Source: Rugalucina vietnamica (taxonomy: Eukaryota > Mollusca > Bivalvia > Lucinida > Lucinidae). From it: a DNA stretch of 64,000 bases. The notes beneath the pieces were generated by a model that was not told where the DNA came from, did not search any database, and saw only the letters and a program-made list of their open reading frames with translations. The position numbers and the translations under genes are program-made. Positions 1,638-35,277 of the stretch are shown piece after piece. The first letter of the stretch is position 1; the number at the start of each line of letters is the position of its first letter. The stretch is from assembly GCA_964017185.1 (NCBI GenBank), contig OZ024876.1, positions 32,153,778 through 32,217,777 of the forward strand, written 5' to 3'.

Positions 1638-1682
1638 GGCGGATATTGAAAGGAAGAAAGAAGACCTTAGAACTATGGTGGG
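1638..1682 (+). CDS. COG1: COG1 window exon 1
   Basis: A 45-nt microexon follows a TTGTTTTGTTGTAG acceptor and encodes ADIERKKEDLRTMVG. It starts and ends inside codons (phase 2 on both sides), so it could be skipped or repeated without frameshift. The donor is GTAAGT. The whole exon is also the template of the minisatellite that follows. Confidence 0.92.
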
Positions 1683-18400: not shown

Positions 18401-21400
18401 CAATGATTAGTCTACGGACAACCTATGGAATAGAACTAAGAGCCATGATTGAACAGAGCCTTTAATTTGCTGCTTCTCTTTGCTAATATATGGACAGATG
18501 TGTTGAAGATCTAGTAAAAATAGCTTAAAATTGGTTTTTTTATGTCAGAATTCCGTTTCTGATATATGGATATTGGATATTTGTGTTTAAAAACAGTCAA
18601 GACTGTAGGAGCAGAAATTTTCATGTGACCTTATTTTAGACATTTCTATTCCAGAATTATTCCTTGAATTCACAAGCAAGTATACTTGCACTCTATTGTA
18701 AGCCTTTATTAGCAGCAATATTGAATCAATGAGGCCACAAGTTCACAAAATTTAGCAAGCTTTTCAAAACTTACAGTATATGAGCCGTATCATGAGAAAA
18801 CCAGATTTTTGCCTATGCAAAAACAAAGGCGCAGATCAGCTGTGCAGTAAATGCATAACTGATCAGCACCTTTGTTTTTGCTACACAGATAGTATAATTC
18901 CTCTTCTTTTTAAATACAAAATTTCAGGCTTCTAGCCTGTTTCTGTCACTGTACAGGCTGGTTTGTGTCAGACTTGGTCAGAAACCCCGAAGACCAATTT
19001 TCCCACGTCCCAGCTCATATGTTGTCAGTTTTGTTACTTTACCTGAGCCGGGTCATGAGAAAACAGGATTTTTGCCTATGCAAAAACAAAGTTGCAGATC
19101 AGCATCTTTGTTTTCGCTATACGGATTGTACAATTTCTCTTCTTCTTAAATTCGAAATTTCAAGCTTCTAGCCTGCTTCTGTGACTGTAGATCTCGGTTT
19201 GTGTCAGACATGGTCGGAAACCCCGAAGACCGGTTTTCTCGCATCGCAGCTCACCTGTCGGTGTATGTTTTTTTGTCAGCTCTCTGAAGTCAGAAACAGA
19301 CCTTGCCACCTATATCTGGTCTGAGTCTGCGAATGACATTGCTCCTAACACGGCCTGGACTGTGTCAGGCTCCAGAACACTACTCGAGAGTGGGGGACTT
19401 ATGATGAAAGCGAAGGCTTACACTCCAGTTGTACAGAGGTATGTGTGGGAGGTGGGGGTGGGGTTGGGTGGGTGTTGGGGGGTGGGGGGATGGGGGGGCT
19501 TATGATGAAAGCGAAGGCTTACACTCCAGCTGTACAGAGGTATGTGTGGGAGGTGGGGGTGGGGTTGGGTGGGTGTTGGGGGGTGGGGGGATGGGGGGGC
19601 TTATGATGAAAGCGAAGGCTTACACTCCAGTTGTACAGAGGTATGTGTGGGAGGTGGGGATGGGGTTGGATGGGTGTTGGGGGGATGGGGGGGCTTATGA
19701 TGAAAGCGAAGTCTTACACTCCAGTTGTGCAGAGGTATGTGTGGGAGGTGGGGGTGGGGTTGGGTGGGTGTTGGGGGGTGGGGGATGGGGGGGCTTATGA
19801 TGAAAGCGAAGGCTTACACTCCAGTTGTACAGAGGTATGTGTGGGAGGTGGGGGTGGGGTTGGGTGGGTGTTGGGGGGATGGGGGGGCTTATGATGAAAG
19901 CGAAGGCTTACACTCCAGTTGTACAGAGGTATGTGTGGGAGGTGGGGGTGGGGTTGGGTGGGTGTTGGGGGGGGTGGGGGGATGGGGGGGCTTATGATGA
20001 AAGTGAAGGCTTACACTCCAGCTGTACAGAGGTATGTGTGGGAGGTGGGGGTGGGGTTGGGTGGGTGTTGGGGGGGTGGGGGGCATGGGGGGGCTTATGA
20101 TGAAAGCGAAGGCTTACACTCCAGCTGTACAGAGGTATGTGTGGGAGGTGGGGTAGGGTTTGGTGAGTGTGGGGGGCTTATGCTGAAAGCGAAGGCTTAT
20201 GTGGGGTAGGGTATGGTGAGTGTGGGGGGCTTATGCTGAAAGCGAAGGCATACTCCAGTTCTACAGAGCTATGTGTGGGATTTAGGGGTGGGGTGCCAGG
20301 GGAGGGGGGGGTGTCTAAACTAGCACCATTTTCGCTCCTGAACACAGGAAATTCAGTTTGACCCGAACGTCATGTAAAATGGTGGTTAGCAACGCCACCA
20401 GCTCCAGGGGCCGGTAAACGAGACCATAATGATGCATATTGATGCTACCAGCCCCAGGGGCCATCACAACATGTAAGACATGCCTACTGGCCCCAGGGGC
20501 CGGTGAATTGTTGTTAAACGCATGGGGATAGGTAAAGAAGAGGGGCGGTTTACCGGCCGTAAAAGGGTATATAAACACCGCAAAATATCAGACCACCAGG
20601 ATTGTGGTCAATCCTCTGAAGAAATCCATATTATTGGAAGAAACTAGTCAGGAATTTGCGAAAGAAAACTTTTGCATTGAACCACTAGAGCATGACTGAG
20701 GAGCACAGACACGAATCGTCACCCACTCCCCATTTCATAATGTAAAATTGGATACATTAAAAGTAAATGATTTAAATTCATAGCCAAGTCAGAGACTTTT
20801 ATATCTTCTTTATGTTGTCTTTTCAGTTTATGTAAAAATTTTGATGAGAAACTGAGATTAATGTTAGACGATACAAGGTTCTATCTCTACTGTGAGGAGG
20901 AGCCTGTTGCCATGGCAACAAGGTCACCATTCAGTAAATATGAGGACACGCCCACTCTACTTAGTTACATCCAGACATCTTGTGTGGATGAAATAAATGG
21001 GTAAGAATTTTGTTTAGAAGGGATACGAGTATATCCTGTTTCAGAGTTGCTTTATCAAGGTAAGATTCAATTGGGCCTGTGCGTGTCAACAGGCTTGCTG
21101 GGATCTTGGAAGTAACGGATTAAGAAACAAGTCATTCTGTGGCATCACATCTGGGGCTATTCTGTTTGCCCATGTCCCACATATGTCATGACGTCCTCAT
21201 TTTGGTAAAAAGTCCAATAAAATGGAAGCAATGTCCCAACATGACCTTAGCTGTTGACTGGGACCTTAAGCATCAATTCAAATGAACAAACAAGCAAACA
21301 AAAAGGACGCCAGGCTTATATGAGTGAAACCACTATAAGAGAGAAATCACTAATCAAACAAAAAAAAAATCATTCTGTATTTATTTCAGCATACTGAATT

Positions 21401-24400
21401 TCCTTGGTGATAAACTGACCGAGTATAAACAGATTCTCACATACAGTAAAGACAGAAACATTGCTACGGGCAACAGGTAATGACAGCAGATGAAATCCAG
21501 TGAACCACAACACAAGAAACTGGTCTTAGGTGTTTTCGACCAGCTCCTCCACAGACCGGCTTGAACAATCACAGTTGAAGACGAATCTTAAAATTTTGGA
21601 TTTAAGGGAAGAGGAACAGTTCTATCAGTGAAGCGAAAACAAATACCCTGATCGGCTGCGCAGTTACTGAGCACAAACTTTTATAGAAGAAAATTGTAGA
21701 CATTATGAGCTGCGTCATGAGAAAACCAGATTTTTGCCTATGAGAAGACAAAGCCACAGTAACTGCGAAGCTGATCAGCGGCTTTATTTTCGCTACATGG
21801 ATAGTACAATTCCTCTACTTTCTAAATCCAAAATTTCCAGCCTCTAGCCATCTTCTGTGACTGCACAGGTCGGTTTGTGTCAGACCGGGTCGGAAACCCC
21901 GAAGACAGGTTTTCTCACGCCACGGCTCTTATTACAACAGGAGAAAGAGGTATTTGTTTCTAATATTTTGTTGCGGAAAACATAATGTACATGGTACATT
22001 GATTAAATTGAAGCATACAAATCAGTGGAAAAAAACTAAAGCAGCAAAATTGTTTGTCATTTCATTATACCATTTTTATTTAAATACCTCTTTCAGCCAT
22101 TAACAATAAAGATCTTGTTTTCAGATTACTTTTGATTGGTCGACTGTGTGCTGCCATCTGTGACCTCATGCCACACCTGAAGCAATGCATGCTGGGACAT
22201 GTCAAGTTAGAGAGACAGGACAGTCTGAAGTAAGAGGGTTTTCGGACTCAAGTTTTGTTCATTCATTATTATTTTTTTCCTTTCTAGTTGGTCACATATT
22301 AAAGAAAAGGCCAATCATATGAGACATATAATTTTGTGTAAATTACTGATTTTATGTGTGGAAGTTTAATCTGCTCATTGATTGATCACAATACAAAAAG
22401 TGTGTTTTCTCACCTTTCAAGCTGATATAAGATTGTATTCAGGTTTAAGATTTTTCTGTTTTGTGAGTTCATGGTGTATTCCAGCAAAATACTTGAATAT
22501 GTAACAAGAGATGATTTTATATCGCCAGGTCAATGAAGAAGCCTGGTCGGGGTAGTGAACACAATACAGTGTGGGACACCAGTAGAACTAAACTCATAGC
22601 ATGTCAACATGATACATACAAGTAGGTACCATTCAGTATTTGAGTAAAGATTAACTTGGTGCATTGGCCTGACCCTAGTTTGTTAAAGAATTAAACTCGA
22701 GATTGAGAGCTTGGTCAGGGGTTAAATCCCCACTGGTGCTGTTTTGTGTTGTTGACTACCGATAGAACTGGCCCAAGAACTTCTCTGGCTATCTGTGGGA
22801 CCAAGAAGTATTGATCCTGTCTTGACATGAATGTAAAACTTGTTGACTGGGACAATAAACCATAACCATAAACCAACAATTACCAATAAAATGTACACAA
22901 CAACAGTAATATGTATATGTGGAGTCAAGAAATTACAGGCATTGTTATAGTCAAAACAGTGTCTATAAAGAAGCATGTTATTAAGAGGTTGAGATGTAAT
23001 ATAGTTGAGTTCCAATGGACATGTAGTATCCCATTATTTCAGAATTTGGATAGACCACATAGCAGAGATAGTGCTGGAAGGATTCAGACTGGCGGCAGAC
23101 TCCGAAACTGCTCAGGATCTTGTCAGGACTTGCTCAGTAAGTTTAATGGGCCATAAATTGATAATGCTTTGAAGTTTAATGGGTTCATATGGTTTGTATG
23201 TTTAATTGGCCTCATTGCCCAGTAAGTTTAATGGGTTACAATGCTTTGAAGTTCAATGGGTTCCTTTGCTTTTAAGTTTAATGTGCCTCATTGCTCTGAA
23301 GTTTAATGGGTTTCTATGCTTTGAATGTTTAATGGGCCTTGGCGCTGACTAAGTTTAGTGGGTCACAATGCTTTGAAGTTTAATGGGTTCCTTTGCTTTT
23401 AAGTTTAATGTGCCTCATTGCTCTGAAGTTTAATGGGTTCATATGCTTTGTATGCTTAATGGGCCTCATTGCTCTGAAGTTTAATGGGACCCTATGCTCA
23501 GTAAGTTAAATGGGTCTAATGCTCTGCATGCTCAATGGGCTCTAATGCTATGTAAGCTTAATAAGCCCCAAGAGTCTGAAGAACAATGGAGCTAATGCTA
23601 TGAAAGTTTAATGGACCAATTCTCTGTTGGATAATGGGCCTCAGTGCTCTGTAAGTTTAAGGGCGGACCAAGTGCTTTCAAGTTTTTTGTAAGATTATTG
23701 GGCCAAAATGCTCTGTAGTTTAGTGCTTTGTAGTTTAATGGGCTCTTTTACTCTTTTATAAGTTTAATGGGCACCAGTGCTCTGTAAGTTAATGGGCCCC
23801 AATGCCCTGTAATTTAATTTATCCCAATTCTGTGTAAGTTTAATAAACCCCCTAATGCTCTAAAGTTCACCTTAAAGTTCACTAGTCCCAATTTTCTGTT
23901 AGTTTTATGGAACCCCAATACTCTGAAGTTTAACGGGCCTCAATGCATGACTGCAGTGCCTTTATTTTCTGGTTGTTACTATTTTTAGCGTTGGGAGGAG
24001 GTATCAATAGAAGAAGAGACAGAAGATGGGAAGAAGATTAGTTCAAAAATAGCTGTACCCTCACAGGTAAGTCATCTGTGCCCTTGCAGGTAAGGTGGCT
24101 GTGCCCTCACAGTTAATATAGCTGTACCCTCACAGGTAAGGTAGATGTACCCTCACAGGTAAGATAGCTGTACCCTCACAGGTGAGAGAGATGTATCCTC
24201 ACAGGTGCGATAGCTGTACCCTCACAGGTAAGATAGTTGTACCCTCACAGGTAGAATTGTTGTACCCACACAGATGAGATAGCTGTACCCTTACAGGTTA
24301 AAGTAGCTGTACCCTCACAGGTCAGATAGCTGTACCCTCACAGGTAAGATAGCTTTACCCACACAGGTAATGTAGCTGTACCCTCACAGGTAAGATAGCT

Positions 24401-27400
24401 TTACCCACACAGGTAAGGTAGCTGTACCCTCACAGGTAAGATAGCTTTACCCACACAGGTAAGGTAGCTGTACCCTCACAGGTAAGATAGCTTTACCCAC
24501 ACAGGTAAGGTAGCTGTAGCTGTACCCTCATAGGTAAGATAGCTTTGCCCACACAGGTAAGGTAGCTGTACCCTCACAGGTGAGATAGCTTTACCTTCAC
24601 AGGTAAGACAGCTGTACCCTCACAGGTGAGATAGCTGTACCATCATAGGTAAGATAGCTGTACCCTCACAGGTATGGTAGCTGTACTTCCGCAGGTAAGA
24701 TAGCTGTACCCTCACAGGTATGGTAGCTGTACTTCCGCAGGTAAGATAGCTGTACCCTCACAGGTATGGTAGCTGTACTCCCGCAGGTAAGGTAGCTGTA
24801 CCCTCACAGGTATGGTAGCTGTACTCCCGCAGGTAAGGTAGCTGTACCCTCATAGGTAAGATAGCTGTACCCATCAAATAAGCTAGTCGTACCATCACAG
24901 GTAAGGTAGCTGTACCCTCACAGGTAGTTGTACCCTCACAGGTGCTTTGTAACTTTCCTGCAGCAAGGCACATTTGCTCCTCAAAATAATGGTAAATACC
25001 CAGGAAGCAGTGGCTCTGTTTGAACATAATTAGAAATTGTTGACTGGGACAATAAGGATGGAACAAAAACACTCCCCCTGTGTAAAAAGAGGTTGAATAG
25101 TTTTGACTATTTGTACAAATCAGTACTTAATTGGCACATGATGTGCGAAATGCACCAGCGGGGCAGTAGTTTTAACTGTACCATGCTAGTTACATCACCC
25201 AAGCAAACATAATGGAAAAATAGGAAACAGCAGTTTTGACTATACCATAGCTAATGACGTCAACGTCACTGGAATGGCATAGAATATTTCAGGCATAAAC
25301 AGCTTCACACGCAAATTAAAAGTCAATTTTGCAGCAAAATCACTAATTGGTTAAGTTGGGCAATAAAGCAGTCATTTTATGGCTGTTTGGCAAAATAGTC
25401 AAAAGTATGCCCCTAGATACCATTGACAGCTCAATGGGCCCTTGGCCTAACAGCATAGTTTTGACTATTCCCCAACCAGGCATGAACTGGTTAATATGCT
25501 TAATATTGAGCTATATTTTGCAGGCATCCTGGTATCTTCTGTCCCTACTTTACAGTGTCTGTCAAGACTTGAACCAAGTTGGAGGGCATGCTGTTGGAAG
25601 GTATTTTATTACTAAATTAGTTTTACTAATTTATTTTGTGTGATTAATATTTGCAACTTTCGTGGGCAGAATTATTGGTGAAAATATAAATTGCCGCTAA
25701 CATGTCAATTTTAATATATCATACATTATTTTCAGTGTGCTAAGTTTCACTGTCCAGGAAAATGAATCACACTGAAAATATGCATGGAGACGAAATCACG
25801 ATATTTGAGCTGTGGGGCGAGAAAACCGGTCTTTGGGGTTTGTGACCAGGTGCGACACAAATCTGCCTGTGCAGTCACAGAAGCAGGCTAGAGGCATGAA
25901 ATTTTGGCTATTAGTAGAAGAGGAATTGTACTTTCCGGGTAGCAAACACAAAGGCGTGATGCACAGTTATGTCAAAAACATAGGCTTTCTTATGCAGCTG
26001 CATTATTTCAGTTGATAATCTTCTTCAAACGAGGTGCAGTGGTTTACTAGAAAGTGCGAGAAAAAAAAAAGATATGACAAAAAATTGTCAAACTGAAAAA
26101 GCATATGAGGTCCTTTAAGCTATCTACCAATTGGTCAGTGATAAACATTCAGTTACATACCAGGGTCATTGACTTGTACAAGAAACACACTTTTGACTCT
26201 CTTATGGCATTGTTCATTTAACATTTCTTTGTTATGTGGGGAGAATGTCTGACTCCCAATCCAGAGTTCCTGGGTTCAAACCCCACTGGAGCGGTGTTGT
26301 GTCCTTGAGTAAGAGACATTAACTCTCCATAGTACTGGCCCCGAGGTTATAAAACTTTTTTCATGCTCAGCTCAGCTGAGACTAAAATTTATCCTGCTCA
26401 TAAATGTTAAAATGCCAACAATTGTTGGCATTTTAACATTTATGGGCAGGATAAATTACAAGTTTTTGAGTTTTGAACCTGAATTTTCCAATAATTTTGA
26501 CTATTTCAGCATTTATGAGCAGTTGAAATTTCATGCTCAGCTGAGCTGAGCTTGAAAAAAGTTTTATAACCTCGGGGCCTGGATAATACTCGGGTAGTGG
26601 TGGGTCCATCCAATTATGACTGTAAAAGTGAAGACTAAGGCATTAAACCACAATACAAACATGTTTATTCTTTCGAATTTCAGGTCAGTTCTCCAACACC
26701 TAGTCTGCCTTATATCAGATGGATTATTGAAGACTTATGAAACCATCATAAAGGAGAGGAGAGCGGACTCTAGTCCCTGCCCACTCAACCAACAGAGGGC
26801 ACTTCAGTTGCTGTTTGATATAAGATTTTTGTTGTTGATAATACCCAGGAAAGATGATTCTAGAGTAAGTCTATCCATTTGTTTTATGTCTATATAATGT
26901 TATATGTACATATATGTGTAATGTTACATGTACATATATATGTAGATACTTACCATTATAGCAATTTTATTTGTTTGTATTGAGGTTTAATGTCCAAGTC
27001 AACCATTTTTATACTCCGCCACTTAAAAAAGTGCGGGGTATTATGTTACCGGTATACCCTCCAAAAAAATTGTGTTTGAGTGTCCGTCTGTCCTTCTGTC
27101 CGTCTGTCCATCCGTCAGCATTTCATTTCCGGGCTTTATCTTGAGCATTTATTGACCGATTTTCTTCAAACTTTGTATAGGAGTTCATATCAGGAAGGAG
27201 TGGTTTGGGAAAGAAGATGGGTAAATTTCTTCAAATAAGTACAGAGTTATGGCCCTTGAGTTACATTAAAATTTCGTTTCCAGGCTCTATCATGAGTATT
27301 TATTGACCGATTTTCTTTAAACTTTGTATAGGAGTTCATATCATGAAGGAGTGGTCTGGGATCGAAGATGGGTAAATTTTGTCAAATAAGTACAGAGTTA

Positions 27401-30400
27401 TGGCCCTTGATTTGCGTTAAAATTTTGTTTCAGGGCTCTATCTTGAGCATTTATTGACCGATTTTCTTCAAACTTTGTATAGGAGTTCGTACCAAGAAGG
27501 AGTGGTCTGGGATTGAAGATGGGTAAATTTCGTCAAATAAGTACAGAGTTATGGCCCTTGATTTACGTTAAAATTTTGTTTCCGGGCTCTATCTTGAGCA
27601 TTTATTGACCGATTTTCTTTAAACTTTGTATAGGAGTTCGTATTAGGAAGGAGTGGTTTGGGATTGAAAACGAATAAATTTCGTTAAATAAGTACAGCGT
27701 TATGGCCCATGATTTACATTAAAATTTCGTTTCCTGCCTCTATTTTGTGCATTTATCAACCAATTTTCTTCAAACTTTGTATAAAAGTTCAAATCAGGAA
27801 GTAGTGGTTTGGGATTGAAGATGGGTAAATTTTATCAATGTATATAGAGTTATGGTCCTTCATTTATGACAAAATTTTGTTCTGCTCTTTATCTTGAGAA
27901 TTTATTGACAGACATTTTTGCTAAATTAAATTTGCGTGGCGGGGTATCATGCATGCCTGCAGCGCTTGTATTCTGTCATGTCGGGATGGAGTATTGATAT
28001 GGGAAAAACGTCTTGCATATAAGTTTCCATCACAAATTTTACACAAACTGGGCAGTACAACATAATGTAGGCTGGAGAATTTAAGAAGGATAAGCATTGT
28101 ACTAACACGAAGAAAAACAAAAGCGGTGCTTATCAGCTGGGCAGCTGATCTGCTTTGCAGCTTATCTTTTTGCATACATGCATTCTCATTATACACCTCC
28201 CTTCTCTCCCAACAGAGATGTACTTGGGTCCAAACTCCACTGATGCCGAGTTGTTTCTTTGAGCAAGATACATTACAAGTAACTTTCCAAAGTAATGGTT
28301 AATTCATTTAAGCCTGGCGTCCCTTTTATGGGACATTGGCAAACAGAATAGCCCCAGATGTGACACCGCAGAATGCGGCGTCCCATCCGGGGCTATTCTG
28401 TTTGCTTAGAGAATTTTCATTGAAAAATTGAATAAAATTTAAAAATCACTCCTGACACCCCTAAAAATGAAAGTGGATACACCAAAATGATAATGATGGG
28501 AAAATCCATTCGTCAAATATGGGTTAATACTCAAGAAGTAACGGCTACATTGCATTGGCTGGGATAATAAACTACAAATCAAGCAAAGATTAAGGGATTT
28601 GATTTAGACAATTGACTCCTCCGCCAGCAAGGTATAACCACGCCCACCAATATTTCCTTAGACAAACATTGTGTTTTTGCACCTATATTTACCTGTAAAA
28701 AGCATGTGTTGGTTTGTTTGTCTAACTCACGTGTTGTTTAAACATCATTGACCGTTAGCTAATGTGCTGATTTGAATGGTCAATATAAAATGAATATTAA
28801 TGATGGGTGGTTTGACGGAGGACTCAATTAAATTTGTTCATACTTTCAGGACAGTAAACGCTATAACCAGAGAATGCAGGGTATCATATCGAAACTTGAA
28901 GAACTGGTGGACCCATTCGATCTGGATGTGTTTTCACCATATATACAGTCAAACTTGTCGAAGTTGGCACAAAGATCTTCAGTAAGTGCAGGACTTTGCT
29001 CTCAGTTTGATTTTTTTACTTGTCTAGGGGGCATATCATGTGCATAGCTTCTTTAAATGTCTTTACAGCTAAAATATTTTGTAGAAATTTTGGATTTAAG
29101 AAAAAGAAAAAGTTTACTATCAGTGTAGCGAAAACAAAGGTGCTGATTAGCTTCGCGGTCACTGCGAAGCTGATCTGCTTCTTTGTTTTTCGCATATGCA
29201 GACTGTTGGTTTTCTCATAACGTGGCACAACGGGGCCCTGAGAAATTTTATAAATGAGCCCCCAGGGCATGATTGGCTAAACCACTTGCCTTGTAAACAA
29301 GGGTTTGTGGATTTGCTCCATAACTTCACTCTTTCAGATTAGACTTTAAATCAAGGTCCCAACCCCATATGGCCATAGCTGTTGAGTGGGATGTAAGACA
29401 CCACATAAACCAACAAACCTAGTCAAGAACCTGTTCTCAACATTCCCAACAAGTAATGACCTTAAGCCACATATGAAAGAAACATTCCTTCATTATACAA
29501 GTTTGTTTATCCAGGTACTACTAGGTGCCCTCACCAGTATAGACAAGTCGGGACTGTATGGTCTAAGTTCTCGCCCTGCAGCAAGCTCCCAGCAGGAGCA
29601 ACATAATGTGATATTGTTGTCGAGTTGTTCTACACGGTTCTCAACACTACCCCTGAGTACACAGATGAGTAGATACTCTACACCCCAGCCGGTGCCGAAC
29701 CAGACAGTTTACACTGTAAGTATTGTGGTGAGTAGATACTCTACATCCCAGCCAGTGCCAAATTAGACTGTTTACACTGTAAGTATAGTGGTGAGTAGAT
29801 ACTCTACACCCCAGCCAGTGCCAAATTAGACTGTTTACACTGTAAGTATAGTGGTGAGTAGATACTCTACACCTCAGTCAGTGCCAAACCAGTCTGTTTA
29901 CACTGTAAGTATTCTGATGAGTAGATACTCCACACCTCAGTCAGTGCCAAACCAGACATTTTACACTGTAAGTATTGTGGTGAGTAGATACTCTATACTC
30001 CAGCCAGTGCCAAACCAGACAGTTTACACTGTAAGTATTGTGGTGAGTAGATATGCCACACCCCAGCCAGTGCCAAATCGGACTGTTTACTCTGTATGTA
30101 TTGTGGTGAGTAGATACTCTACACCCCAGCCAGTGCCAAACCAGACGGTTTACACTGTAAGGATTGTGGTGAGTAGATATGCCACACCCCAGCCAGTGCC
30201 AAACCAGACTGTTTACACTGTAAGTATTGTGGTGAGTAGATACTCCACACCTCAGTCAGTGCCAAACCAGACAGTTTACACTGTAAGGATTGTGGTGAGT
30301 AGATACTCCACACCCCAGTCTGTGCCAAACCAGACAGTTTACACTGTAAGGATTGTGGTGAGTAGATACTCCACACCCCAGTCTGTGCCAAACCAGACAG

Positions 30401-31567
30401 TTTACACTGTAAGGATTGTGGTGAGTAGATACTCCACACCCCAGTCAGTGCCAAACCAGACAGTTTACACTGTAAGGATTGTGGTGAGTAGATACTCCAC
30501 ACCCCAGTCTGTGCCAAACCAGACAGTTTACACTGTAAGGATTGTGGTGAGTAGATACTCCACACCCCCGTCAGTGCCAAACCAGACAGTTTACACTGTA
30601 AGGATTGTGGTGAGTAGATACTCCACACCCCAGTCAGTGCCAAACCAGAGTTTACACTGTAAGGATTGTGGTGAGTAGATACTCCACACCCCAGTCTGTG
30701 CCAAACCAGACAGTTTACACTGTAAGGATTGCGGTGAGTAGATACTCCACACCCCAGTCAGTGCCAAACCAGACAGTTTACACTGTAAGGATTGTGGTGA
30801 GTAGATACTCCACACCCCAGTCAGTGCCAAACCAGACAGTTTACACTGTAAGGATTGTGGTGAGTAGATACTCCACACCCCAGTCTGTGCCAAACCAGAC
30901 TGTTTACACTGTAAGTATTGTGGTGAGTAGATACTCCACACCTCAGTCAGTGCCAAACCAGACAGTTTACGCTGTAAGTATTGTGGTGAGTAGATACCAG
31001 ACTGTTTACACTGTAAGTATAGTGGTGAGTAGATACTCCACACCCCAGCCGGTGCCAAACCAGACAGTTTCCACTGTAAGTATTGTGGTGAGTAGATACT
31101 CTACACCCCAGTCAGTGCCAAATTAGACTGTTTACACTATAAGTATAGTGGTGAGTAGATACTCCACACCCCAGCCAGTGCCAAATTAGACAGTTTACGC
31201 TGTAAGTTTTGTTGAAGGGATTGGCTTATCAAGGAAAGGATTTTGTTCTGGAGTTTATAAATTTTGAGTAGCAATGGAAACAAGAAGGCATGAAGAACTT
31301 ATGTAATAAACACTTTTTTATGACAATTTCATCGATGTCTTATAAATTTGTAAATTGACTCCTTGAAACCCTTGTTATTTGTATACTTTTCAGCGATCCT
31401 CTGACACTGGTGGTCCATCTCTCTCCGAGACTGCTGGTTCCATTCTACCCCCTCCATCTATGCAGAAACTGGCAAATAGCTCGTCATTCTACGACAAACT
31501 GGGCACCGGTCTTGGCAGCATGAGTGAACTCTCCAACTGGTTCTCGAATATCGGCTCTAAGTCTTAG
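1638..31567 (+). CDS. COG1: COG1, conserved oligomeric Golgi complex subunit 1 (N-terminus outside window)
   Basis: Twenty-three exons join in phase: 1638-1682, 5994-6060, 6778-6887, 7969-8038, 8391-8612, 10039-10282, 10949-11005, 12456-12594, 14266-14371, 15953-16057, 16464-16555, 19280-19438, 20827-21000, 21390-21476, 22125-22229, 22529-22621, 23043-23136, 23989-24066, 25524-25600, 26684-26864, 28850-28981, 29515-29715, 31394-31567. They encode about 936 residues. The order and spacing of conserved blocks follow vertebrate COG1 from near residue 40 to the C-terminus: MVGERYRDLIEAADTI (Vps51-type N-terminal region), AQIKLLLDMPEK, DLMPHLKQCMLG, NQVGGHAVGR, NQQRALQLLFDIRF, DPFDLDVFSPYIQSNL, LSNWFSNIGSKS. 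COG1 is a cytosolic peripheral Golgi protein that bridges the two lobes of the COG tether in intra-Golgi retrograde traffic. The promoter and first coding exon lie to the left of the window. All introns are GT-AG. Confidence 0.95.
3475..3660. other. Intron 1 remainder without recognised content
   Basis: A short AT-rich stretch between the minisatellite and the composite repeat. I see no gene or repeat in it. Confidence 0.6.
3661..5645 (+). mobile_element. CACCTGAG-type composite repeat element, copy H1
   Basis: It begins with a hairpin (AGCTCACCTGAGCC...GGCTCACAGGTGAGCT), followed by CGTCCGTCCGTCGTC runs and four internal units of about 450 bp starting near 3752, 4201, 4658 and 5108. It ends CAGGTGAGCG...GGACCATTGGTCCTCTGGT. 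Each unit carries AAGATGGCCGCCATGGCTAT and TGACCTTGACCTATTTTACG blocks. There is no ORF, so it is non-autonomous. Short stem-loops near both ends would allow a Helitron-like origin, but I cannot show it. Confidence 0.75.
5754..5966. mobile_element. TA-flanked MITE with TACTGTAAATT ends
   Basis: Terminal inverted repeats TACTGTAAATTaGGAAAT and ATTTCCGAATTTACAGTA are flanked by TA, as expected of a Tc1/mariner-type MITE. Inside are short GCGAA/TTCGC inverted motifs. It ends 28 bp before the acceptor of COG1 window exon 2. Confidence 0.7.
5994..6060 (+). CDS. COG1: COG1 window exon 2
   Basis: Acceptor TTGTCTTTTAG, donor GTGAGT. It encodes GERYRDLIEAADTITEMKNS-AQN, the most conserved stretch of the COG1/Vps51 N-terminal domain. 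Its first base completes the glycine codon left by exon 1. Confidence 0.97.
6136..6376 (+). repeat. MITE-A copy 2
   Basis: Nearly full length, with a central hairpin GCAGATCAGCTTCATGGTAA...GCTGATCAG and the right arm ending TTGGTTTTCTCACAAGATGG. Confidence 0.75.
6410..6641. mobile_element. MITE with CACGCCCGGTAAAGTG inverted ends, 5-bp TSD
   Basis: Inverted repeats of about 45 bp: CACGCCCGGTAAAGTGCAAA at the left and its complement ending CCGGGCGTG at the right. Each contains a nested GACCACC/GGTGGTC palindrome. The flanks carry the direct repeat CAATA at 6405-6409 and 6642-6646. Confidence 0.82.
6778..6887 (+). CDS. COG1: COG1 window exon 3
   Basis: Encodes VMSTIGKLEVLCTDLKTAQL...QEIEHK. 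Acceptor ATTATTCAG, donor GTAAGA; it ends after two bases of a lysine codon. This is the weakly conserved linker after the N-terminal domain, predicted helical. Confidence 0.92.
7143..7366 (+). repeat. MITE-C copy 1 (family description)
   Basis: A foldback element of about 225 bp. It begins TTTAAGCCTAGCGTCC, has a central inverted pair GGCAAACAGAATGACCCCAG / CTGGGGCTATTCTGTTTGCC around GGACGC...GCGTCC, and ends with TCCATTC...ATATGGGTTAA. Other copies are at 21119, 28306, 31858 and 38352. Confidence 0.75.
7667..7913. repeat. Foldback MITE with CCCCAAGGTTAT ends
   Basis: The outer inverted ends are CCCCAAGGTTATG and CATAACCTTGGGGCC. The centre is a hairpin of AAAATGCCAACAATTGTTGG type. A second copy at 26338-26578 has the same design. 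Confidence 0.72.
7969..8038 (+). CDS. COG1: COG1 window exon 4
   Basis: Encodes RKEEARFYGVASQIKLLLDM-PEK. Acceptor TTTTGTTGCAG, donor GTGGGT. It matches the conserved QIKLLLE.PEK segment of COG1 and ends on a codon boundary. Confidence 0.96.
8039..8390. other. COG1 intron 4
   Basis: An AT-rich intron with a homopolymer pair at about 8213-8242 (about 12 C followed by about 19 A). Nothing else recognised. Confidence 0.8.
8391..8612 (+). CDS. COG1: COG1 window exon 5
   Basis: Seventy-four codons: IWSSLDCEDFLSASRLFLLS, then SLQLDSQHAPNFLYWFPVLN and AAISHFKISILQGCRRLL. It aligns with the human segment that begins IWSSMEAS and continues through the HFRSTIL region. It is phase 0 at both ends; donor GTATTT. 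Confidence 0.97.
8613..9290. other. COG1 intron 5, first part
   Basis: AT-rich, without a recognised repeat. Short ORFs here show no family resemblance. Confidence 0.6.
9294..9450 (+). repeat. MITE-A copy 3, truncated
   Basis: The left end CATGAGAAAACCAACAATGTG, the TCTGACACAAACAGAGCTGTAC arm and part of the centre remain. The right end runs into a C-rich stretch (CCCCACCCC) at 9468-9520. Confidence 0.65.
9783..10018 (+). repeat. MITE-A copy 4
   Basis: Full length, with a good central hairpin (GATCAGCTTCGCCATAACTG...GCTGATCAG). It ends just 20 bp before the acceptor of window exon 6. Confidence 0.78.
10039..10282 (+). CDS. COG1: COG1 window exon 6
   Basis: Encodes KIAESLCSILLLENSNPRQV, FNEFLLARTSAVQQLFHGSN and QIGTIVQLVTTTIHQIHAVF. 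This is the conserved region around LLEESSPRQALTDFLLARK in vertebrates. It ends one base into a codon; donor GTACAT. Confidence 0.97.
10292..10533 (+). repeat. MITE-P copy 1 (family description)
   Basis: A foldback family of about 250-300 bp. The left end is GCCCATGCAATATACAGA. A long palindrome pairs ATTTTTGCTC/AAACATAGATTGTGGGTAC with GTACCCACAATCTATGTTTT. The core of fresher copies is AACCGCCTC...GAGGCGGTT, and the right part reads CCCCAGTTTTGC...GGGGTATA...GACATGTTTTCCTGATG. No coding capacity. This copy has lost the GC-rich core. Confidence 0.72.
10534..10725 (+). repeat. MITE-P copy 2, directly adjacent
   Basis: This second copy keeps the AACCACCTTGGCGAGGCGGTTC core. It is followed by a C-run/A-rich simple repeat at 10718-10795. 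Confidence 0.7.
10949..11005 (+). CDS. COG1: COG1 window exon 7
   Basis: A 57-nt exon encoding VTSNLLWKILTKVTSDKQIG; acceptor TTATTCCAG, donor GTAAGC. It corresponds to the CGLLFSTLETITG region of human COG1. The intron phases (1/1) match both neighbours. Confidence 0.92.
11034..11307 (+). repeat. MITE-A copy 5
   Basis: Full length, with the central hairpin partly duplicated (CAGCTGTGCAGTTACTGC twice near 11190-11235). Confidence 0.75.
11571..11740 (+). repeat. MITE-A copy 6, right arm shortened
   Basis: The central hairpin GACCAGCTTCACGGTAACCG...CTGATCAG is intact; the right arm jumps to the TTGGTTTTCTCATGC end. Confidence 0.72.
11951..12192 (+). repeat. MITE-A copy 7
   Basis: Full length, starting GACGCGAGAAAGCCGGTCTTC and ending TTTTTCTCGTGATGCGGCTC, so the outer ends are inverted. 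Confidence 0.75.
12205..12437 (+). repeat. MITE-P copy 3
   Basis: The palindrome arms GATTGTGGGTACATG and GAGTACCCACAATCTATG surround a shortened core. It ends GACATGTTTTCCTGATG, 18 bp before the acceptor of window exon 8. Confidence 0.72.
12456..12594 (+). CDS. COG1: COG1 window exon 8
   Basis: Encodes GLLDLRSSISAKTLPRTVTE, FCPSHKSMSQGVSKTYLQDN and CKQWIQT. It matches the human SISQEYLKDTLQKWI region. Donor GTAAGC; it ends two bases into a codon. Confidence 0.95.
12595..13176 (+). repeat. Minisatellite of tRNA-like A-box units at the start of COG1 intron 8 (26/27 bp)
   Basis: There are about 22 units of the type CCTGTGGCCGAGTGGTAAAG-GCGGCC, starting at the splice donor. The donor sequence itself (GTAAGCGGCGGCTCCTG) resembles the GGTAAAGGCGGCCCCTG junction of the units. 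Each unit contains TGGCCGAGTGG or a close variant. This fits the RNA polymerase III A-box TRGYNNARNGG and looks like the D-arm of Ser/Leu tRNAs. No B-box accompanies them. GC content is far above the surroundings. Long ORFs here on the minus strand are low-complexity shadows. Confidence 0.9.
13184..13408 (+). repeat. MITE-A copy 8
   Basis: Follows the A-box array directly. It runs from GAGCCACAACGCGAGAAAACC to the CAAAAATCGGGTTCAATTAA end; the right terminus is worn. Confidence 0.7.
13748..13868 (+). repeat. tRNA-derived SINE, degraded copy
   Basis: A-box-like TGGGCTAGTGGTTAGACC and B-box-like GGGGTTTGAACC are separated as in a tRNA. A CAAGACACATGAACTCTCC body segment follows, shared with the neighbouring SINE. 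Confidence 0.65.
13869..14048 (+). repeat. tRNA-derived SINE
   Basis: The tRNA-like head carries A-box TGGTGTAGTGGTAGAGC and B-box GGTTCGATCC at 13881-13937. The body is GTTGTGTCCTTGAGCAAGAT and TTAACTCC. The tail TTGTTGACTGG...TTAAGCC ends with A-rich CAATACAAACAAAC. The acceptor stem does not pair well, so this is a SINE head and not a working tRNA gene. Confidence 0.8.
14266..14371 (+). CDS. COG1: COG1 window exon 9
   Basis: Encodes TCIGDVKVGVTKLLNFVNTV and KHLATIRDTVWEQLAQ, like the human NGITNLLMYVKSMKGLAGIR region. Donor GTACAG, phase 0. Confidence 0.96.
14826..14977. repeat. Large foldback hairpin nested in MITE-A copy 9
   Basis: Arms of about 70 bp: TAACTACCCCTTGACCAAAA...GATTTATCACG and its complement CGTGATAAATCG...TTTTTGGTCATGGGGTAGTTA. 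The loop has its own palindrome, AAGCAGATGAAAGGGC/GCCCTTTCATCTGCTT. Confidence 0.85.
14978..15382. repeat. TIR-bounded insert with CTTTATAATGCAACGAAAACC ends
   Basis: Left end CTTTATAATGCAACGAAAAC, right end GGGTTTTTGCATTATAAAG. It has no coding capacity and lies next to the foldback hairpin inside MITE-A copy 9. Confidence 0.6.
15460..15728 (+). repeat. MITE-A copy 10
   Basis: Degenerate; the central TGTGCAGTTACTGCACA hairpin is partly duplicated. Confidence 0.68.
15726..15932 (+). repeat. MITE-A copy 11, abutting copy 10
   Basis: Starts immediately after copy 10 (CAGCTCATATGAGAAAACCAG) and ends 20 bp before the acceptor of window exon 10. Confidence 0.68.
15953..16057 (+). CDS. COG1: COG1 window exon 10
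   Basis: Thirty-five codons, DSSMSNWETVCVRILDQKLS and VWEDLLRPLFVGRVK. It parallels human NHSWDVLCRRLLEKPLLFWE. Phase 0/0. The donor GTATAG begins a two-copy ~43-bp duplication. Confidence 0.96.
16058..16145 (+). repeat. Two-copy tandem duplication starting at the intron 10 donor
   Basis: GTATAGTACTACATA...GGGCGGTACCTC is followed by a diverged copy, GTATATAGTGCCACATA...GGGCGGCACCTC. The first copy starts exactly at the splice donor. Confidence 0.6.
16146..16463. other. COG1 intron 10 remainder
   Basis: No recognised gene or repeat; moderately T-rich towards the acceptor. Confidence 0.6.
16464..16555 (+). CDS. COG1: COG1 window exon 11
   Basis: Encodes ALVRYQLDSSVELTERQVSK and VLTELQSTADR/S. 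It matches the human region ending LVSALQELESS. Acceptor TTGATATAG, donor GTAAAC, phase 0/2. Confidence 0.92.
16575..18392 (+). repeat. MITE-P copy 4, interrupted by composite element H2
   Basis: The left end GCCCATGCAATATACAGAG lies at 16587-16606. The palindrome (GATTGTGGGTACAAG...AACCGCCTCGCTGAGGCGG...) and right part resume at 18149. The 1.5-kb insert is element H2. Confidence 0.78.
16618..18148 (+). mobile_element. CACCTGAG-type composite repeat element, copy H2
   Basis: Same termini as H1, with three internal ~450-bp units starting near 16728, 17180 and 17630. It lies inside a MITE-P copy, so it arrived later. I see no clear target duplication beyond T/A runs. Confidence 0.75.
18393..18779. 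other. COG1 intron 11 segment with a decayed TA-type MITE
   Basis: At about 18604-18778, GACTGTAGGAGCAGAAATTT...AAAACTTACAGTAT is a worn relative of the MITE at 5754. Otherwise nothing recognised. Confidence 0.5.
18780..19018 (+). repeat. MITE-A copy 12
   Basis: Full length, GAGCCGTATCATGAGAAAAC to TTTTCCCACGTCCCAGCTC. Confidence 0.75.
19044..19254 (+). repeat. MITE-A copy 13, central hairpin shortened
   Basis: The ends GAGCCGGGTCATGAGAAAAC and GGTTTTCTCGCATCGCAGCTC are preserved. The hairpin is reduced to a single GATCAGCA. Confidence 0.75.
19280..19438 (+). CDS. COG1: COG1 window exon 12
   Basis: Encodes SLKSETDLATYIWSESANDI, APNTAWTVSGSRTLLESGGL and MMKAKAYTPVVQR. It matches human SLFLWSESPNDLPSDAAW...SSGLSMKAQAISPCVQ. 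Donor GTATGT. Its last ~45 bases are copied in the array that follows. Confidence 0.96.
19393..20262 (+). repeat. Donor-anchored G-rich minisatellite, COG1 intron 12 (~94-105 bp)
   Basis: The exon 3' end (CTTATGATGAAAGCGAAGGC...GTACAGAG) with its donor GTATGTGTGGG and a run of G-rich intron sequence is repeated about eight times. Two shorter degraded units follow near 20180 and 20226. The intron part, such as GGTGGGGGTGGGGTTGGGTG, has many G-triplets on the sense strand and could form G-quadruplexes in DNA or pre-mRNA beside each donor. Unit length varies through G-run changes. Confidence 0.95.
20263..20826. other. COG1 intron 12 remainder
   Basis: Contains three dispersed CCAGGGGCC-type motifs (20403, 20452, 20493). 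No protein resemblance found. Confidence 0.5.
20827..21000 (+). CDS. COG1: COG1 window exon 13
   Basis: Encodes SLCKNFDEKLRLMLDDTRFY, SPFSKYEDTPTLLSYIQTSC and VDEING. It parallels human CSALDSKLKVKLDDLLAYL and AFDRYADAGTVQEMLRTQS. Donor GTAAGA, phase 2/2. Confidence 0.95.
21119..21322 (-). repeat. MITE-C copy 2, interrupted by SINE tail
   Basis: CATCTGGGGCTATTCTGTTTG and CCATGTCCCACA are followed by a SINE-like tail (CTTAGCTGTTGACTGGGACC...AAACAAGCAAAC), then the end AAGGACGCCAGGCTTA. Confidence 0.6.
21390..21476 (+). CDS. COG1: COG1 window exon 14
   Basis: Encodes GILNFLGDKLTEYKQILTYS and KDRNIATGNR. This region is variable in the family. Acceptor TTTATTTCAG, donor GTAATG, phase 2/2. Confidence 0.9.
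21490..21660 (+). repeat. MITE-A copy 14, partial
   Basis: The arm ACAATCACAGTTGAAGACG and the segment GAAGCGAAAACAAATACCCTG remain; the ends are lost. Confidence 0.55.
21707..21930 (+). repeat. MITE-A copy 15
   Basis: Nearly full length, GAGCTGCGTCATGAGAAAAC to GGTTTTCTCACGCCACGGCTC, with half the central hairpin missing. Confidence 0.75.
22125..22229 (+). CDS. COG1: COG1 window exon 15
   Basis: Encodes RLLLIGRLCAAICDLMPHLK and QCMLGHVKLERQDSLK. It corresponds to the very conserved FMARLCQSLGELCPHLKQCI segment. Phase 2/2, donor GTAAGA. Confidence 0.97.
22529..22621 (+). CDS. COG1: COG1 window exon 16
   Basis: Encodes SMKKPGRGSEHNTVWDTSRT and KLIACQHDTYK. It lies in the divergent linker of the family, so its support comes from the splice sites (CGCCAG, GTAGGT) and phase fit. 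A diverged-intron alternative is possible but unlikely. Confidence 0.82.
22690..22880 (+). repeat. tRNA-derived SINE
   Basis: B-box-like GGGGTTAAATCCCC follows a worn head. The tail AACTTGTTGACTGGGACAAT and AAACCATAACCATAAACC matches other SINE tails in the window. Confidence 0.65.
23043..23136 (+). CDS. COG1: COG1 window exon 17
   Basis: Encodes KIWIDHIAEIVLEGFRLAAD and SETAQDLVRTCS. It parallels human VWSSAVVKVLIHGF. Acceptor TTATTTCAG, donor GTAAGT, phase 2/0. Confidence 0.95.
23130..23945 (+). repeat. Donor-anchored minisatellite, COG1 intron 17 (~23-26 bp)
   Basis: About 30 degenerate units of the type AAGTTTAATGGGCCTCAATG-CTCTG start at the donor. The exon end plus donor reads TGCTCAGTAAGTTTAATGGG, and several units keep that junction (CCCAGTAAGTTTAATGGG near 23219, GCTCAGTAAGTTAAATGGG near 23497). 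The array ends about 45 bp before the next acceptor and so fills almost the whole intron. Confidence 0.9.
23989..24066 (+). CDS. COG1: COG1 window exon 18
   Basis: Twenty-six codons, RWEEVSIEEETEDGKKISSK and IAVPSQ. It matches human SWDELEIQEEAESGSSVTSK. Phase 0/0; donor GTAAGT. The last six codons are the template of the next array. Confidence 0.95.
24048..24948 (+). repeat. Donor-anchored minisatellite, COG1 intron 18 (23 bp)
   Basis: There are about 38 units of ATAGCTGTACCCTCACAGGT-AAG: the last 18 coding bases (IAVPSQ), the donor, and almost no extra intron sequence. Each unit therefore presents CCCTCACAG joined to GTAAG, a 3' splice site fused to a 5' splice site. Variants include a TTACCCACACAG type that alternates with the main type near 24350-24560. 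Confidence 0.95.
24949..25523. other. COG1 intron 18 remainder
   Basis: A SINE-like tail (AATTGTTGACTGGGACAATA) lies at about 25030-25075. Three TTTTGACTAT.CC motifs are spread over 25095-25470. No gene seen. Confidence 0.55.
25524..25600 (+). CDS. COG1: COG1 window exon 19
   Basis: Encodes ASWYLLSLLYSVCQDLNQVG and GHAVGR. It matches human PSWYVQSFLFSLCQEINRVG. Acceptor TATTTTGCAG, donor GTATTT, phase 0/2. Confidence 0.98.
25806..26005 (+). repeat. MITE-A copy 16
   Basis: The ends GAGCTGTGGGGCGAGAAAACC and GCTTTCTTATGCAGCTGC remain; the central hairpin is mostly lost. Confidence 0.68.
26230..26662 (+). repeat. tRNA-derived SINE interrupted by foldback MITE
   Basis: The head with B-box GGGTTCAAACCCC and the body GTGTCCTTGAGTAAGAGACA run to 26337. 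A 241-bp foldback follows, then the SINE tail (GACTGTAAAAGTGAAGACTA, CATTAAACCACAATACAAAC) to 26662. Confidence 0.72.
26338..26578. repeat. Foldback MITE with CCCCGAGGTTATAAAAC ends
   Basis: Second copy of the family at 7667. Ends CCCCGAGGTTATAAAAC and GTTTTATAACCTCGGGG; centre ATGCCAACAATTGTTGGCAT. It is nested in a SINE. Confidence 0.82.
26684..26864 (+). CDS. COG1: COG1 window exon 20
   Basis: Encodes RSVLQHLVCLISDGLLKTYE, PLNQQRALQLLFDIRFLLLI and IPRKDDSR. It matches human QNRALQLLYDLRYLNIVL. Phase 2/0, donor GTAAGT. Confidence 0.97.
27008..27951 (+). repeat. Composite repeat of ~145-bp units bounded by CCGCCACTT / GTGGCGGGGTATCAT
   Basis: After a GTCCGTCTGTCCTTCTGTCC run come six units of TTTATTGACCGATTTTCTTC...GAGTTATGGCCCTTGA. 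The left end ACTCCGCCACTTAAAAAAG and the right end GTGGCGGGGTATCATGC close the element. It is built like the CACCTGAG elements but unrelated in sequence. Confidence 0.78.
27985..28190 (+). repeat. MITE-A copy 17, degraded
   Basis: GAAGAAAAACAAAAGCGGTGC, GCAGCTGATCTGC and TTTTGCATACATGCATTCTC are recognisable remnants. Confidence 0.5.
28206..28590 (+). repeat. SINE remnant interrupted by MITE-C copy 3
   Basis: B-box-like GGGTCCAAACTCC and TTGAGCAAGATACATTACAA precede MITE-C (28306-28531). The SINE tail GGCTGGGATAATAAACTAC follows it. Confidence 0.6.
28306..28531 (+). repeat. MITE-C copy 3
   Basis: Full length: TTTAAGCCTGGCGTCCC, GCAAACAGAATAGCCCCAG, GGGGCTATTCTGTTTGC, ATATGGGTTAA. Confidence 0.8.
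28850..28981 (+). CDS. COG1: COG1 window exon 21
   Basis: Forty-four codons, DSKRYNQRMQGIISKLEELV, DPFDLDVFSPYIQSNLSKLA and QRSS. It matches human ALIDPFDLDVFTPHLNSNLH. Phase 0/0, donor GTAAGT. Confidence 0.98.
29080..29228 (+). repeat. MITE-A copy 18, left end missing
   Basis: The hairpin GATTAGCTTCGCGGTCACTG CGAAGCTGAT and the right end CTGTTGGTTTTCTCATAACG are preserved. Confidence 0.68.
29265..29415 (+). repeat. SINE-like repeat
   Basis: A-box-like TGATTGGCTAAACC and the tail ATGGCCATAGCTGTTGAGTG plus ACATAAACCAAC match SINE tails elsewhere in the window. Confidence 0.5.
29515..29715 (+). CDS. COG1: COG1 window exon 22
   Basis: Sixty-seven codons: VLLGALTSIDKSGLYGLSSR, EQHNVILLSSCSTRFSTLPL and STQMSRYSTPQPVPNQTVYT. 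It matches human VLFGLVTG and EPHNILPLASSQIRFGLLPLS. Phase 0/0, donor GTAAGT. The last ~51 bases are the template of the array. Confidence 0.96.
29660..31205 (+). repeat. Donor-anchored minisatellite, COG1 intron 22 (63 bp)
   Basis: About 24 units: GTGAGTAGATACTCTACACC...CAGACAGTTTACACT, the donor GTAAGTATTGTG, then the next GTGAGTAGA. Each unit holds two donor-like motifs (GTAAGT or GTAAGG, and GTGAGT). The unit is 21 codons, and its consensus has no stop in the exon's frame, so long ORFs run through it (29851-30678). However, copies 2 and 3 carry TAG in that frame (near 29764 and 29827), and a small deletion near 30650 shifts it. Confidence 0.96.
31394..31567 (+). CDS. COG1: COG1 window exon 23 (terminal)
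   Basis: Encodes RSSDTGGPSLSETAGSILPP, the conserved C-terminal block KLANSSSFYDKLGTGLGSMS and ELSNWFSNIGSKS, then TAG. It resembles the human GWLSSM-type terminus. Acceptor TATACTTTTCAG. Confidence 0.96.
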   Translation, partial: RSSDTGGPSLSETAGSILPPPSMQKLANSSSFYDKLGTGLGSMSELSNWFSNIGSKS

Positions 31568-35194: not shown

Positions 35195-35275
35195 TGAGGT
35201 CTGACACAAACCGGCCTGTGCTGTCACAGAAGATGGCTTCGGATTTAAGGAGGAGAGGAATTGTACTATCCGATT
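35195..35275 (+). repeat. MITE-A copy 20, fragment
   Basis: TCTGACACAAACCGGCCTGTG to GAATTGTACTATCCG only; the 108-bp array follows immediately. Confidence 0.6.
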
Positions 35276-35277
35276 AT

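What the first reader, a model, noticed from the sequence alone, without database searches (positions are those of the whole stretch)
1638..31205. Recurrent minisatellites anchored on exon 3' ends and their splice donors
Six COG1 introns (after window exons 1, 8, 12, 17, 18, 22) open with tandem arrays. In five, the unit visibly contains the last bases of the exon plus the GT donor; in intron 8 the array starts at the donor and resembles it. The units are unrelated to one another in sequence and length (59/64, 26, ~100, ~24, 23, 63 bp), so each arose separately. Finding this repeatedly in one gene, and again on the other strand in the neighbouring gene, suggests a process that amplifies exon-intron junctions in tandem. 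The first donor stays next to the intact exon, so splicing may be unaffected. This is the most unusual system-level signal in the window. Tandem duplication of AGGT-containing exon segments is a proposed route to new introns; here the outcome is long arrays.
Basis: partly seen in the sequence, partly recalled or inferred. Interest (0 to 1): 0.88.

Follow-up and report, generated by a model that had tools for sequence, protein, structure and literature searches.

The report
Tandem-repeated exon edges in COG1
In this animal genome the edges of exons, splice sites included, have been copied head to tail into long repeats inside the neighbouring introns, a known but little-studied kind of repeat named in amphioxus, seen here at exon starts as well as exon ends.

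Summary
COG1 was modelled as 23 in-frame exons. Six introns (after exons 1, 8, 12, 17, 18, 22) open with arrays. In five the unit carries exon sequence plus the donor (in intron 1 the whole exon); in intron 8 the array reaches exactly to the donor GT without exon bases. A minus-strand exon has the same (46659-47891).

The donor-centred reading is only partly right. In 90 exon loci of three families (87 used), seeds of 27 arrays hold acceptors as often as donors: 4 and 3 observed, 0.65 and 0.62 expected, together p = 3.6e-4. By coverage, exon edges are not enriched. Hit tables of five families show tandem copies in 17 of 380 exon groups: 6 donor-side, 6 acceptor-side, 5 undecided.

This matches the "mirages" of amphioxus: minisatellites spanning either exon boundary, with splice signals kept and splicing undisturbed (PMC3087553, passages). 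My reading: half-exon tandem duplications that grow in the intron and are tolerated because only the copy joined to the rest of the exon has both splice sites. Splicing and polymorphism were not testable. New member of a known kind.

The parts
1638..1682 (+). COG1 window exon 1 (45 bp), source of the intron 1 array unit (whole exon)
   Evidence: gene model; sequence
1656..3471 (+). intron 1 array, 59/64-bp unit with exon, acceptor-like AG and donor GTAAGT; 27 donor copies, 27 with GT
12450..12594 (+). COG1 window exon 8
12595..13174 (+). intron 8 array, 26-bp unit, reaches exactly to the donor GT; no exon bases
   Evidence: genome search matched only this locus
19280..19438 (+). COG1 window exon 12
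19392..20249 (+). intron 12 array, 94-103-bp unit = about 45 exon bases + donor + intron start; 9 copies, 8 with GT
23043..23136 (+). COG1 window exon 17
23137..23818 (+). intron 17 array, about 25-bp unit, degenerate; unit resembles TGCTCA|GTAAGTTTAATGGGCC (TRF rows 23163-23664 and 23759-23818)
23989..24066 (+). COG1 window exon 18
24049..24943 (+). intron 18 array, 23-bp unit ATAGCTGTACCCTCACAG|GTAAG; 33 copies, 31 with GT
29515..29715 (+). COG1 window exon 22
29666..31207 (+). intron 22 array, 63-bp unit = about 50 exon bases + donor; 25 copies, 24 with GT
   Evidence: matched only its own locus
47845..47945 (-). minus-strand exon; donor end from a script, acceptor end read by eye
   Evidence: donor; acceptor by eye
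46659..47891 (-). 59-bp array of that exon's tail + donor GTAATT; 21 copies, 20 with GT
58762..58912 (-). single downstream copy (139 of 151 bases identical) of a minus-strand exon tail + donor at 58961-59111; exon status by eye from the open frame

Best explanation
These are exon-edge minisatellites of the kind called 'mirages' in amphioxus. Shown: a stretch of genomic DNA that includes one exon edge (rarely the whole exon) with its splice site has been duplicated in tandem, at either edge of exons, with a different unit at each locus. Because the units hold exon and intron DNA joined as in the genome, no spliced RNA intermediate is needed. Shown: the extra copies lie on the intron side and mostly keep the splice dinucleotide, while the copy joined to the rest of the exon keeps the reading frame. 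Inferred: the extra copies are half-exons with only one splice site, so exon definition ignores them, and the array can grow by slippage or unequal exchange at little cost. Inferred: duplications that would break the exon are removed by selection, which is why survivors sit on an edge and extend into the intron. The apparent 5-fold excess of seeds at exon edges over intron positions is observed in a small sample and not explained.
For: Window: six COG1 arrays plus one minus-strand array, units unrelated to one another. Donor copies: 129 of 136 in seven arrays (five of the window, L077, L043; functional copies included) keep GT. Extending the exon past its true donor meets an in-frame stop 2, 2, 65, 34, 25 and 49 bp on (introns 1, 8, 12, 17, 18, 22), before any array donor except one loose site at +28 in intron 17, so the exon-adjacent donor must dominate in productive mRNA. 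Both edges elsewhere: donor arrays L077 (CCT exon, 178 bp x 7.7), L043 (55 bp, 13 copies; exon inferred by eye) and L039 (31 bp x 2.8); acceptor arrays L048 (170 bp, 5 copies of the acceptor motif, the true one included), L045 (105 bp x 3.9; exon inferred by eye), L028 (129 bp x 3) and L006 (28 bp x 2.9). Dynein exons with 13 tail copies (C17) and 5 tail copies (C4) behind the full exon. Seeds: 27 arrays of at least 2.5 copies after the TE filter; donors 3 vs 0.62 expected, acceptors 4 vs 0.65, together p = 3.6e-4. Three of seven window arrays searched genome-wide match only their own locus. Published parallel, with RT-PCR said to show regular splicing (PMC3087553).
Against: No RNA evidence here: use of the exon-adjacent site is inferred. 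Exon definition does not by itself explain the seed excess over intron positions. The excess rests on 7 arrays, one of them weak (L044, 69% match, 2.6 copies) and one a whole-exon array counted as donor (L082); with 42 arrays of at least 1.9 copies it is 7 vs 1.96, p = 0.004, and with 51 arrays without the TE filter p = 0.01. Whole-exon arrays exist (intron 1; L082), which exon definition should not hide. By coverage rather than seed, exon edges are not enriched. Donor GT columns are kept better than the mean of the other columns in 4 of 6 arrays in the right register, worse in 2, so some constraint on the copies is not excluded.
Confidence: 0.7

Rival explanations
1. Local tandem duplication in this genome is frequent and blind to gene structure. 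Exon-edge cases are the conspicuous, selection-filtered part of it, and COG1 is an extreme gene noticed because it is extreme.
For: 50-bp windows with a direct local copy, after setting aside windows that hit two or more other loci (10 of 77 donor, 14 of 79 acceptor, 38 of 194 exon-interior, 1270 of 4417 flank windows): donors 5 of 67, acceptors 7 of 65, exon interior 12 of 156, flanks 302 of 3147, all similar. Array coverage of donors 3 of 78, acceptors 3 of 80, flanks 5.9% of bases. The gene was chosen after the pattern was seen.
Against: Coverage counts every copy of an intron array but only one copy at an exon edge. Counted by seed, edges are in excess, 7 vs 1.27, p = 3.6e-4, and in COG1 5 of 6 arrays.
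Confidence: 0.25
2. One reading: a process that specifically amplifies splice donors, as a route towards new introns.
For: All seven long arrays at exon edges in the window hold a donor. Outside the window, edge arrays of at least 5 copies that could be assigned are 4 donor-side (C17, C4, C8/L077, L043) and 1 acceptor-side (L048); a seven-copy kinesin cluster on C10 is unassigned.
Against: Acceptor-side duplications are as frequent overall: 4 vs 3, 6 vs 6. In all six COG1 introns the TRF array ends short of the acceptor.
Confidence: 0.08
3. The arrays are functional: many U1-binding donor-like sites at the start of an intron act as decoys or as protection against premature polyadenylation.
For: 129 of 136 donor copies keep GT; GT columns are above the mean of other columns in 4 of 6 arrays in the right register.
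Against: GT columns are below that mean in the other 2, and many other columns are kept just as well. Acceptor arrays would need another function.
Confidence: 0.04
4. Assembly artefact.
For: Arrays are hard to assemble, and an amphioxus mirage was said to be aberrantly assembled in the genome draft (PMC3087553).
Against: Copies differ from one another (interior copies, mean identity to the rest 0.80 to 0.93 across seven arrays), units differ between loci, and the gene frame is intact. Copy numbers may still be wrong.
Confidence: 0.03

Closest known systems
'Mirages' of amphioxus (Adh3, globin genes BflGb6 and BflGb9; the naming paper, Canestro et al. 2002, known to me only as cited in PMC3087553)
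   [quoted passage not shown] either boundary; units of 10 to about 160 bp; many copies keep AG/GT signals; found at several genes of one genome
[quoted passage not shown] fission yeast SPOG_01682/SOCG_00815, PMC3629103, passages; potato RdRp, PMC4974935, passages)
   Same: Tandem duplication of a segment with splice signals; in fission yeast 24-nt repeat units make up the gained introns
   Different: Here the intron is not made of duplicates from donor to acceptor; the array lies in the 5' part of the intron
Variable internal tandem repeats at exon-intron boundaries of human segmental duplications (PMC2812944, passages)
   Same: Minisatellite units of about 30 bp at an exon-intron boundary
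   Different: There they are said to lengthen exons or form new introns through cryptic sites; here the repeats appear to stay intronic
Tandem (mutually exclusive) exon duplication (PMC6071210, passages)
   Same: Local duplication of exon with intron flanks
   Different: There whole exons are copied and used; here mostly half-exons

Membership tests
mirage minisatellites | tandem repeat unit spans an exon-intron boundary | tested here: met
   introns 1, 12, 17, 18, 22 and the minus-strand exon; intron 8 only from the GT on
mirage minisatellites | occurs at both 5' and 3' exon boundaries | tested here: met
   donor-side in the window; acceptor-side at L006, L028, L045, L048; 6 and 6 of 17 groups
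mirage minisatellites | units differ between loci in sequence and length | tested here: met
   3 of 7 window arrays searched genome-wide match only their own locus
mirage minisatellites | many copies keep AG/GT splice signals | tested here: met
   129 of 136 donor copies with GT; five copies of the acceptor motif in L048, the true one included
mirage minisatellites | regular splicing is not disturbed | not testable with these tools
   no RNA data; only indirect, in-frame stops
mirage minisatellites | length or somatic instability | not testable with these tools
   one assembly only
mirage minisatellites | concerted evolution with edge copies excluded | tested here: inconclusive
   the functional edge copy is within 0.02 of the interior mean in five of seven arrays and about 0.035 lower in intron 18 and L043; distal edge copies score low in six of seven, partly because the array ends there
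[quoted passage not shown]
   TRF arrays end at 3471, 13174, 20249, 23818, 24943, 31207; next exons start at 5994, 14266, 20827, 23989, 25524, 31394; looser repeat-like text continues to about 23940 in intron 17 (by eye)
introner-like elements | dispersed near-identical copies at many introns | tested here: not met
   for 3 of 7 arrays; the search skips very common words

The most novel reading that the evidence does not exclude
Short exon-edge duplications arise about equally at acceptors and donors, but long arrays (5 copies or more) accumulate mainly on the donor side. The first donor is transcribed and committed before the decoys exist, whereas upstream acceptor copies compete for the spliceosome. 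If so, such genomes hold a large set of natural tests of splice-site choice. Seeds would also be truly several-fold enriched at exon edges, pointing to a mutational cause at those edges.
Probability: 0.2. Interest if true: 0.68.

Novelty: new member of a known kind. Interest (0 to 1): 0.46.

Why it matters
Arrays with 7 to 30 intact decoy GTs directly behind a used donor (functional copy subtracted) are a natural experiment on how the spliceosome picks one site among near-identical ones. A genome where tandem copies were seen at 17 of 380 conserved exon groups (undecided cases included) would let that be tested at scale. It would also show that the 'mirage' phenomenon is not confined to amphioxus, which bears on where partial exon duplication and new introns come from.

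Tried and rejected
Donor-specific amplification: rejected as the main reading after acceptor-side arrays proved equally frequent. Mobile-element origin of the units: three arrays searched, each found only at its own locus. tRNA or SINE origin of the intron 8 array, which I suspected by eye: no Rfam match in 12400-14100 at E up to 0.1. Intron gain: array ends compared with acceptors, not met. Solved-structure search with the COG1 model: one chance-like match, E 0.34. Pfam scan of minus-strand pieces and of the 108-bp array's open frames: no match over a curated cut-off. Literature: ten searches (one search was malformed and returned an error); 'mirage' was found only through. A paper on an abalone gene reports a polymorphic 27-bp minisatellite in an intron (PMC6905558, passages); no boundary case is described in the passages seen. 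I make no claim that mollusc cases are absent from print.

Rows dropped before counts: L083, L084 and L059 as repeats of L082 and L048, and L024. One search's TE filter removed the L048 acceptor array, because its unit is a paralogous kinesin exon; L048 was exempted by hand and its 51-bp array left out. L082, a whole-exon array, counts as a donor case. One search used 426 of the 630 exon rows returned (Myosin, Kinesin, Cpn60, Adaptin, Dynein). The HECT, SNF2, UCH and E1-E2 rows (204) were only read by eye; one SNF2 pair (C13:33801368-33801754) looked donor-side, a UCH pair (C7:64460436-64460718) undecided. By sequence, one of the six acceptor-side groups (C8:61636712) is a whole-exon array, and one undecided group is a set of myosin exons about 950 bp apart. 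The exons and edges of L043 and L045 are calls by eye. The donor weight table is recalled, approximate. In one search the intron 22 row used a wrong register; replace it. My automatic acceptor call for L028 was off by 27 bp.

Full report
What is there. The window lies at C8:32153778-32217777 of a 1.09-Gb genome. The plus-strand gene from 1638 to 31567 can be modelled as 23 exons with GT-AG introns and one open frame; its start matches PF08700, the Vps51/EXO84/COG1 N-terminal family, E 6.4e-12. TRF finds long arrays at the start of introns 1, 8, 12, 17, 18 and 22. In introns 12, 17, 18 and 22 the unit is the end of the exon plus the donor and some intron. In intron 1 it is the whole 45-bp exon, with small internal losses in many copies, and both flanks. 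In intron 8 the array can be cut into 22 units of 26-27 bp, the first beginning at the donor GT, 17 of 22 beginning with GT, none with exon bases. A minus-strand exon ends in a 59-bp array of the same make (46659-47891), and another minus-strand exon tail has one extra copy 199 bp downstream, 139 of 151 bases identical. Three further gene-internal arrays, with units of 151 and about 454 bp, look like mobile-element repeats and were set aside.

The copies. Counting copies of the last ten exon bases with at most two mismatches, functional copy included, 129 of 136 in seven arrays (five of the window, L077, L043) keep the GT. By a recalled donor weight table, copies that score at least as high as the true donor are 21 of 26 in intron 1, 7 of 8 in intron 12, 9 of 24 in intron 22, 17 of 20 in the minus-strand array, but 0 of 32 in intron 18 and 3 of 41 loose matches in intron 17. 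If the exon were extended past its true donor, an in-frame stop follows after 2 to 65 bp, before any array donor except one loose site at +28 in intron 17. GT columns are kept better than the mean of other columns in 4 of 6 arrays in the right register and worse in 2, so there is no clear sign that decoys are either purged or protected. Use of the exon-adjacent donor is inferred, not seen.

Is it special to donors? I took exon hits of the Myosin, Kinesin and Cpn60 families across the genome as an exon-anchored sample (90 loci of about 3.3 kb), called donors and acceptors and asked three questions. First, does a 50-bp window have a direct local copy, after setting aside windows that hit two or more other loci (10 of 77 donor, 14 of 79 acceptor, 38 of 194 exon-interior, 1270 of 4417 flank windows): donors 5 of 67, acceptors 7 of 65, exon interior 12 of 156, flanks 302 of 3147. 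Second, is the site covered by a non-TE array: donors 3 of 78, acceptors 3 of 80, flanks 5.9% of bases. Third, does the seed unit of an array hold the edge, counted once per array: of 27 arrays of at least 2.5 copies, 3 donors against 0.62 expected and 4 acceptors against 0.65, together p = 3.6e-4; with 42 arrays of at least 1.9 copies p = 0.004, and with 51 arrays without the TE filter p = 0.01. The first two results go against a special role of exon edges; the third favours one. I hold the third to be the fairer count, because an intron array counts all its copies in the first two and an exon edge only one. The sample is small, three families; one acceptor case (L044) is weak and one donor case (L082) is a whole-exon array. 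All three counts agree that donors and acceptors behave alike.

A second count used only hit tables, partly of the same families. In 426 exon rows of five families, 380 exon groups, 17 groups have tandem copies within 1 kb: 6 donor-side, 6 acceptor-side (one of them a whole-exon array by sequence), 5 undecided, of which one is a set of myosin exons about 950 bp apart. The longest that could be assigned are donor-side: a dynein exon followed by 13 copies of its tail, mostly 112 bp apart (C17), another with 5 copies 156 bp apart after the first step (C4), a CCT exon with 6 more copies listed, mostly 172-181 bp apart (C8). Leaving the window out, edge arrays of at least 5 copies that could be assigned are 4 donor-side (C17, C4, C8/L077, L043) and 1 acceptor-side (L048); a seven-copy kinesin cluster on C10 is unassigned. 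That is suggestive, not significant.

What it works like. Because units join exon and intron DNA as in the genome, a DNA-level tandem duplication is enough. A duplication across one exon edge leaves one copy with both splice sites and one with a single site, a half-exon. Under exon definition (established knowledge, not tested here) half-exons are not recognised, so such duplications cost little and can grow in the intron, while those inside exons break the frame. This accounts for arrays sitting on exon edges and extending only into the intron, at both kinds of edge. It does not account for an excess of edge seeds over intron seeds, if that excess is real, nor for the whole-exon arrays (intron 1, L082).

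What is known. [quoted passage not shown] The 2002 paper that named them is not held, so I know it only through that citation. The present arrays meet the sequence-level features; splicing and instability could not be tested. Fission-yeast introns made of 24-nt repeats (PMC3629103, passages), the potato RdRp intron (PMC4974935, passages) and human tandem repeats at exon-intron boundaries (PMC2812944, passages) are related but concern intron gain or exon change, which is not seen here: all six TRF arrays end short of the acceptor.

Verdict. The new parts are its frequency in another genome, the equal use of both exon edges, the large number of intact decoy donors, and a hint that long arrays prefer the donor side.

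Noticed in passing
window 1-1145: Open stretch that reads like a reverse transcriptase fragment of a retroelement (by eye, not tested).
   Followed up: no
window 3755-5464, 16716-18025, 62309-63576: Tandem repeats of 449-455 bp, beside TCCGTCG-like microsatellites; similar 454-458-bp arrays lie in L034, L052, L066, so they look like a dispersed mobile element.
   Followed up: partly
window about 48868-51040 and 55675-57840: Near-identical direct repeats of about 2 kb around a 1202-aa minus-strand open frame, the look of an LTR retroelement (by eye).
   Followed up: no
window 33555-34863 and 35275-36628: Two more arrays (49 bp x 27; 108 bp) outside any gene I modelled; the 108-bp one has long open frames but no Pfam match over cut-off.
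   Followed up: partly
window 29830-30678: The 63-bp intron 22 array is a multiple of three and open for 282 codons in the frame of exon 22, but a stop at 29764 cuts it off from the exon.
   Followed up: yes
G000:C17:29963764-29965381 and C4:45152804-45153706: Dynein heavy-chain exons followed by 13 and 5 copies of their 3' part; sequence not fetched.
   Followed up: partly
   Followed up: partly
L082 1502-1899: A CCT exon repeated whole (144 bp x 2.8) with acceptor-like and donor sites in its copies; possible alternative exons.
   Followed up: no
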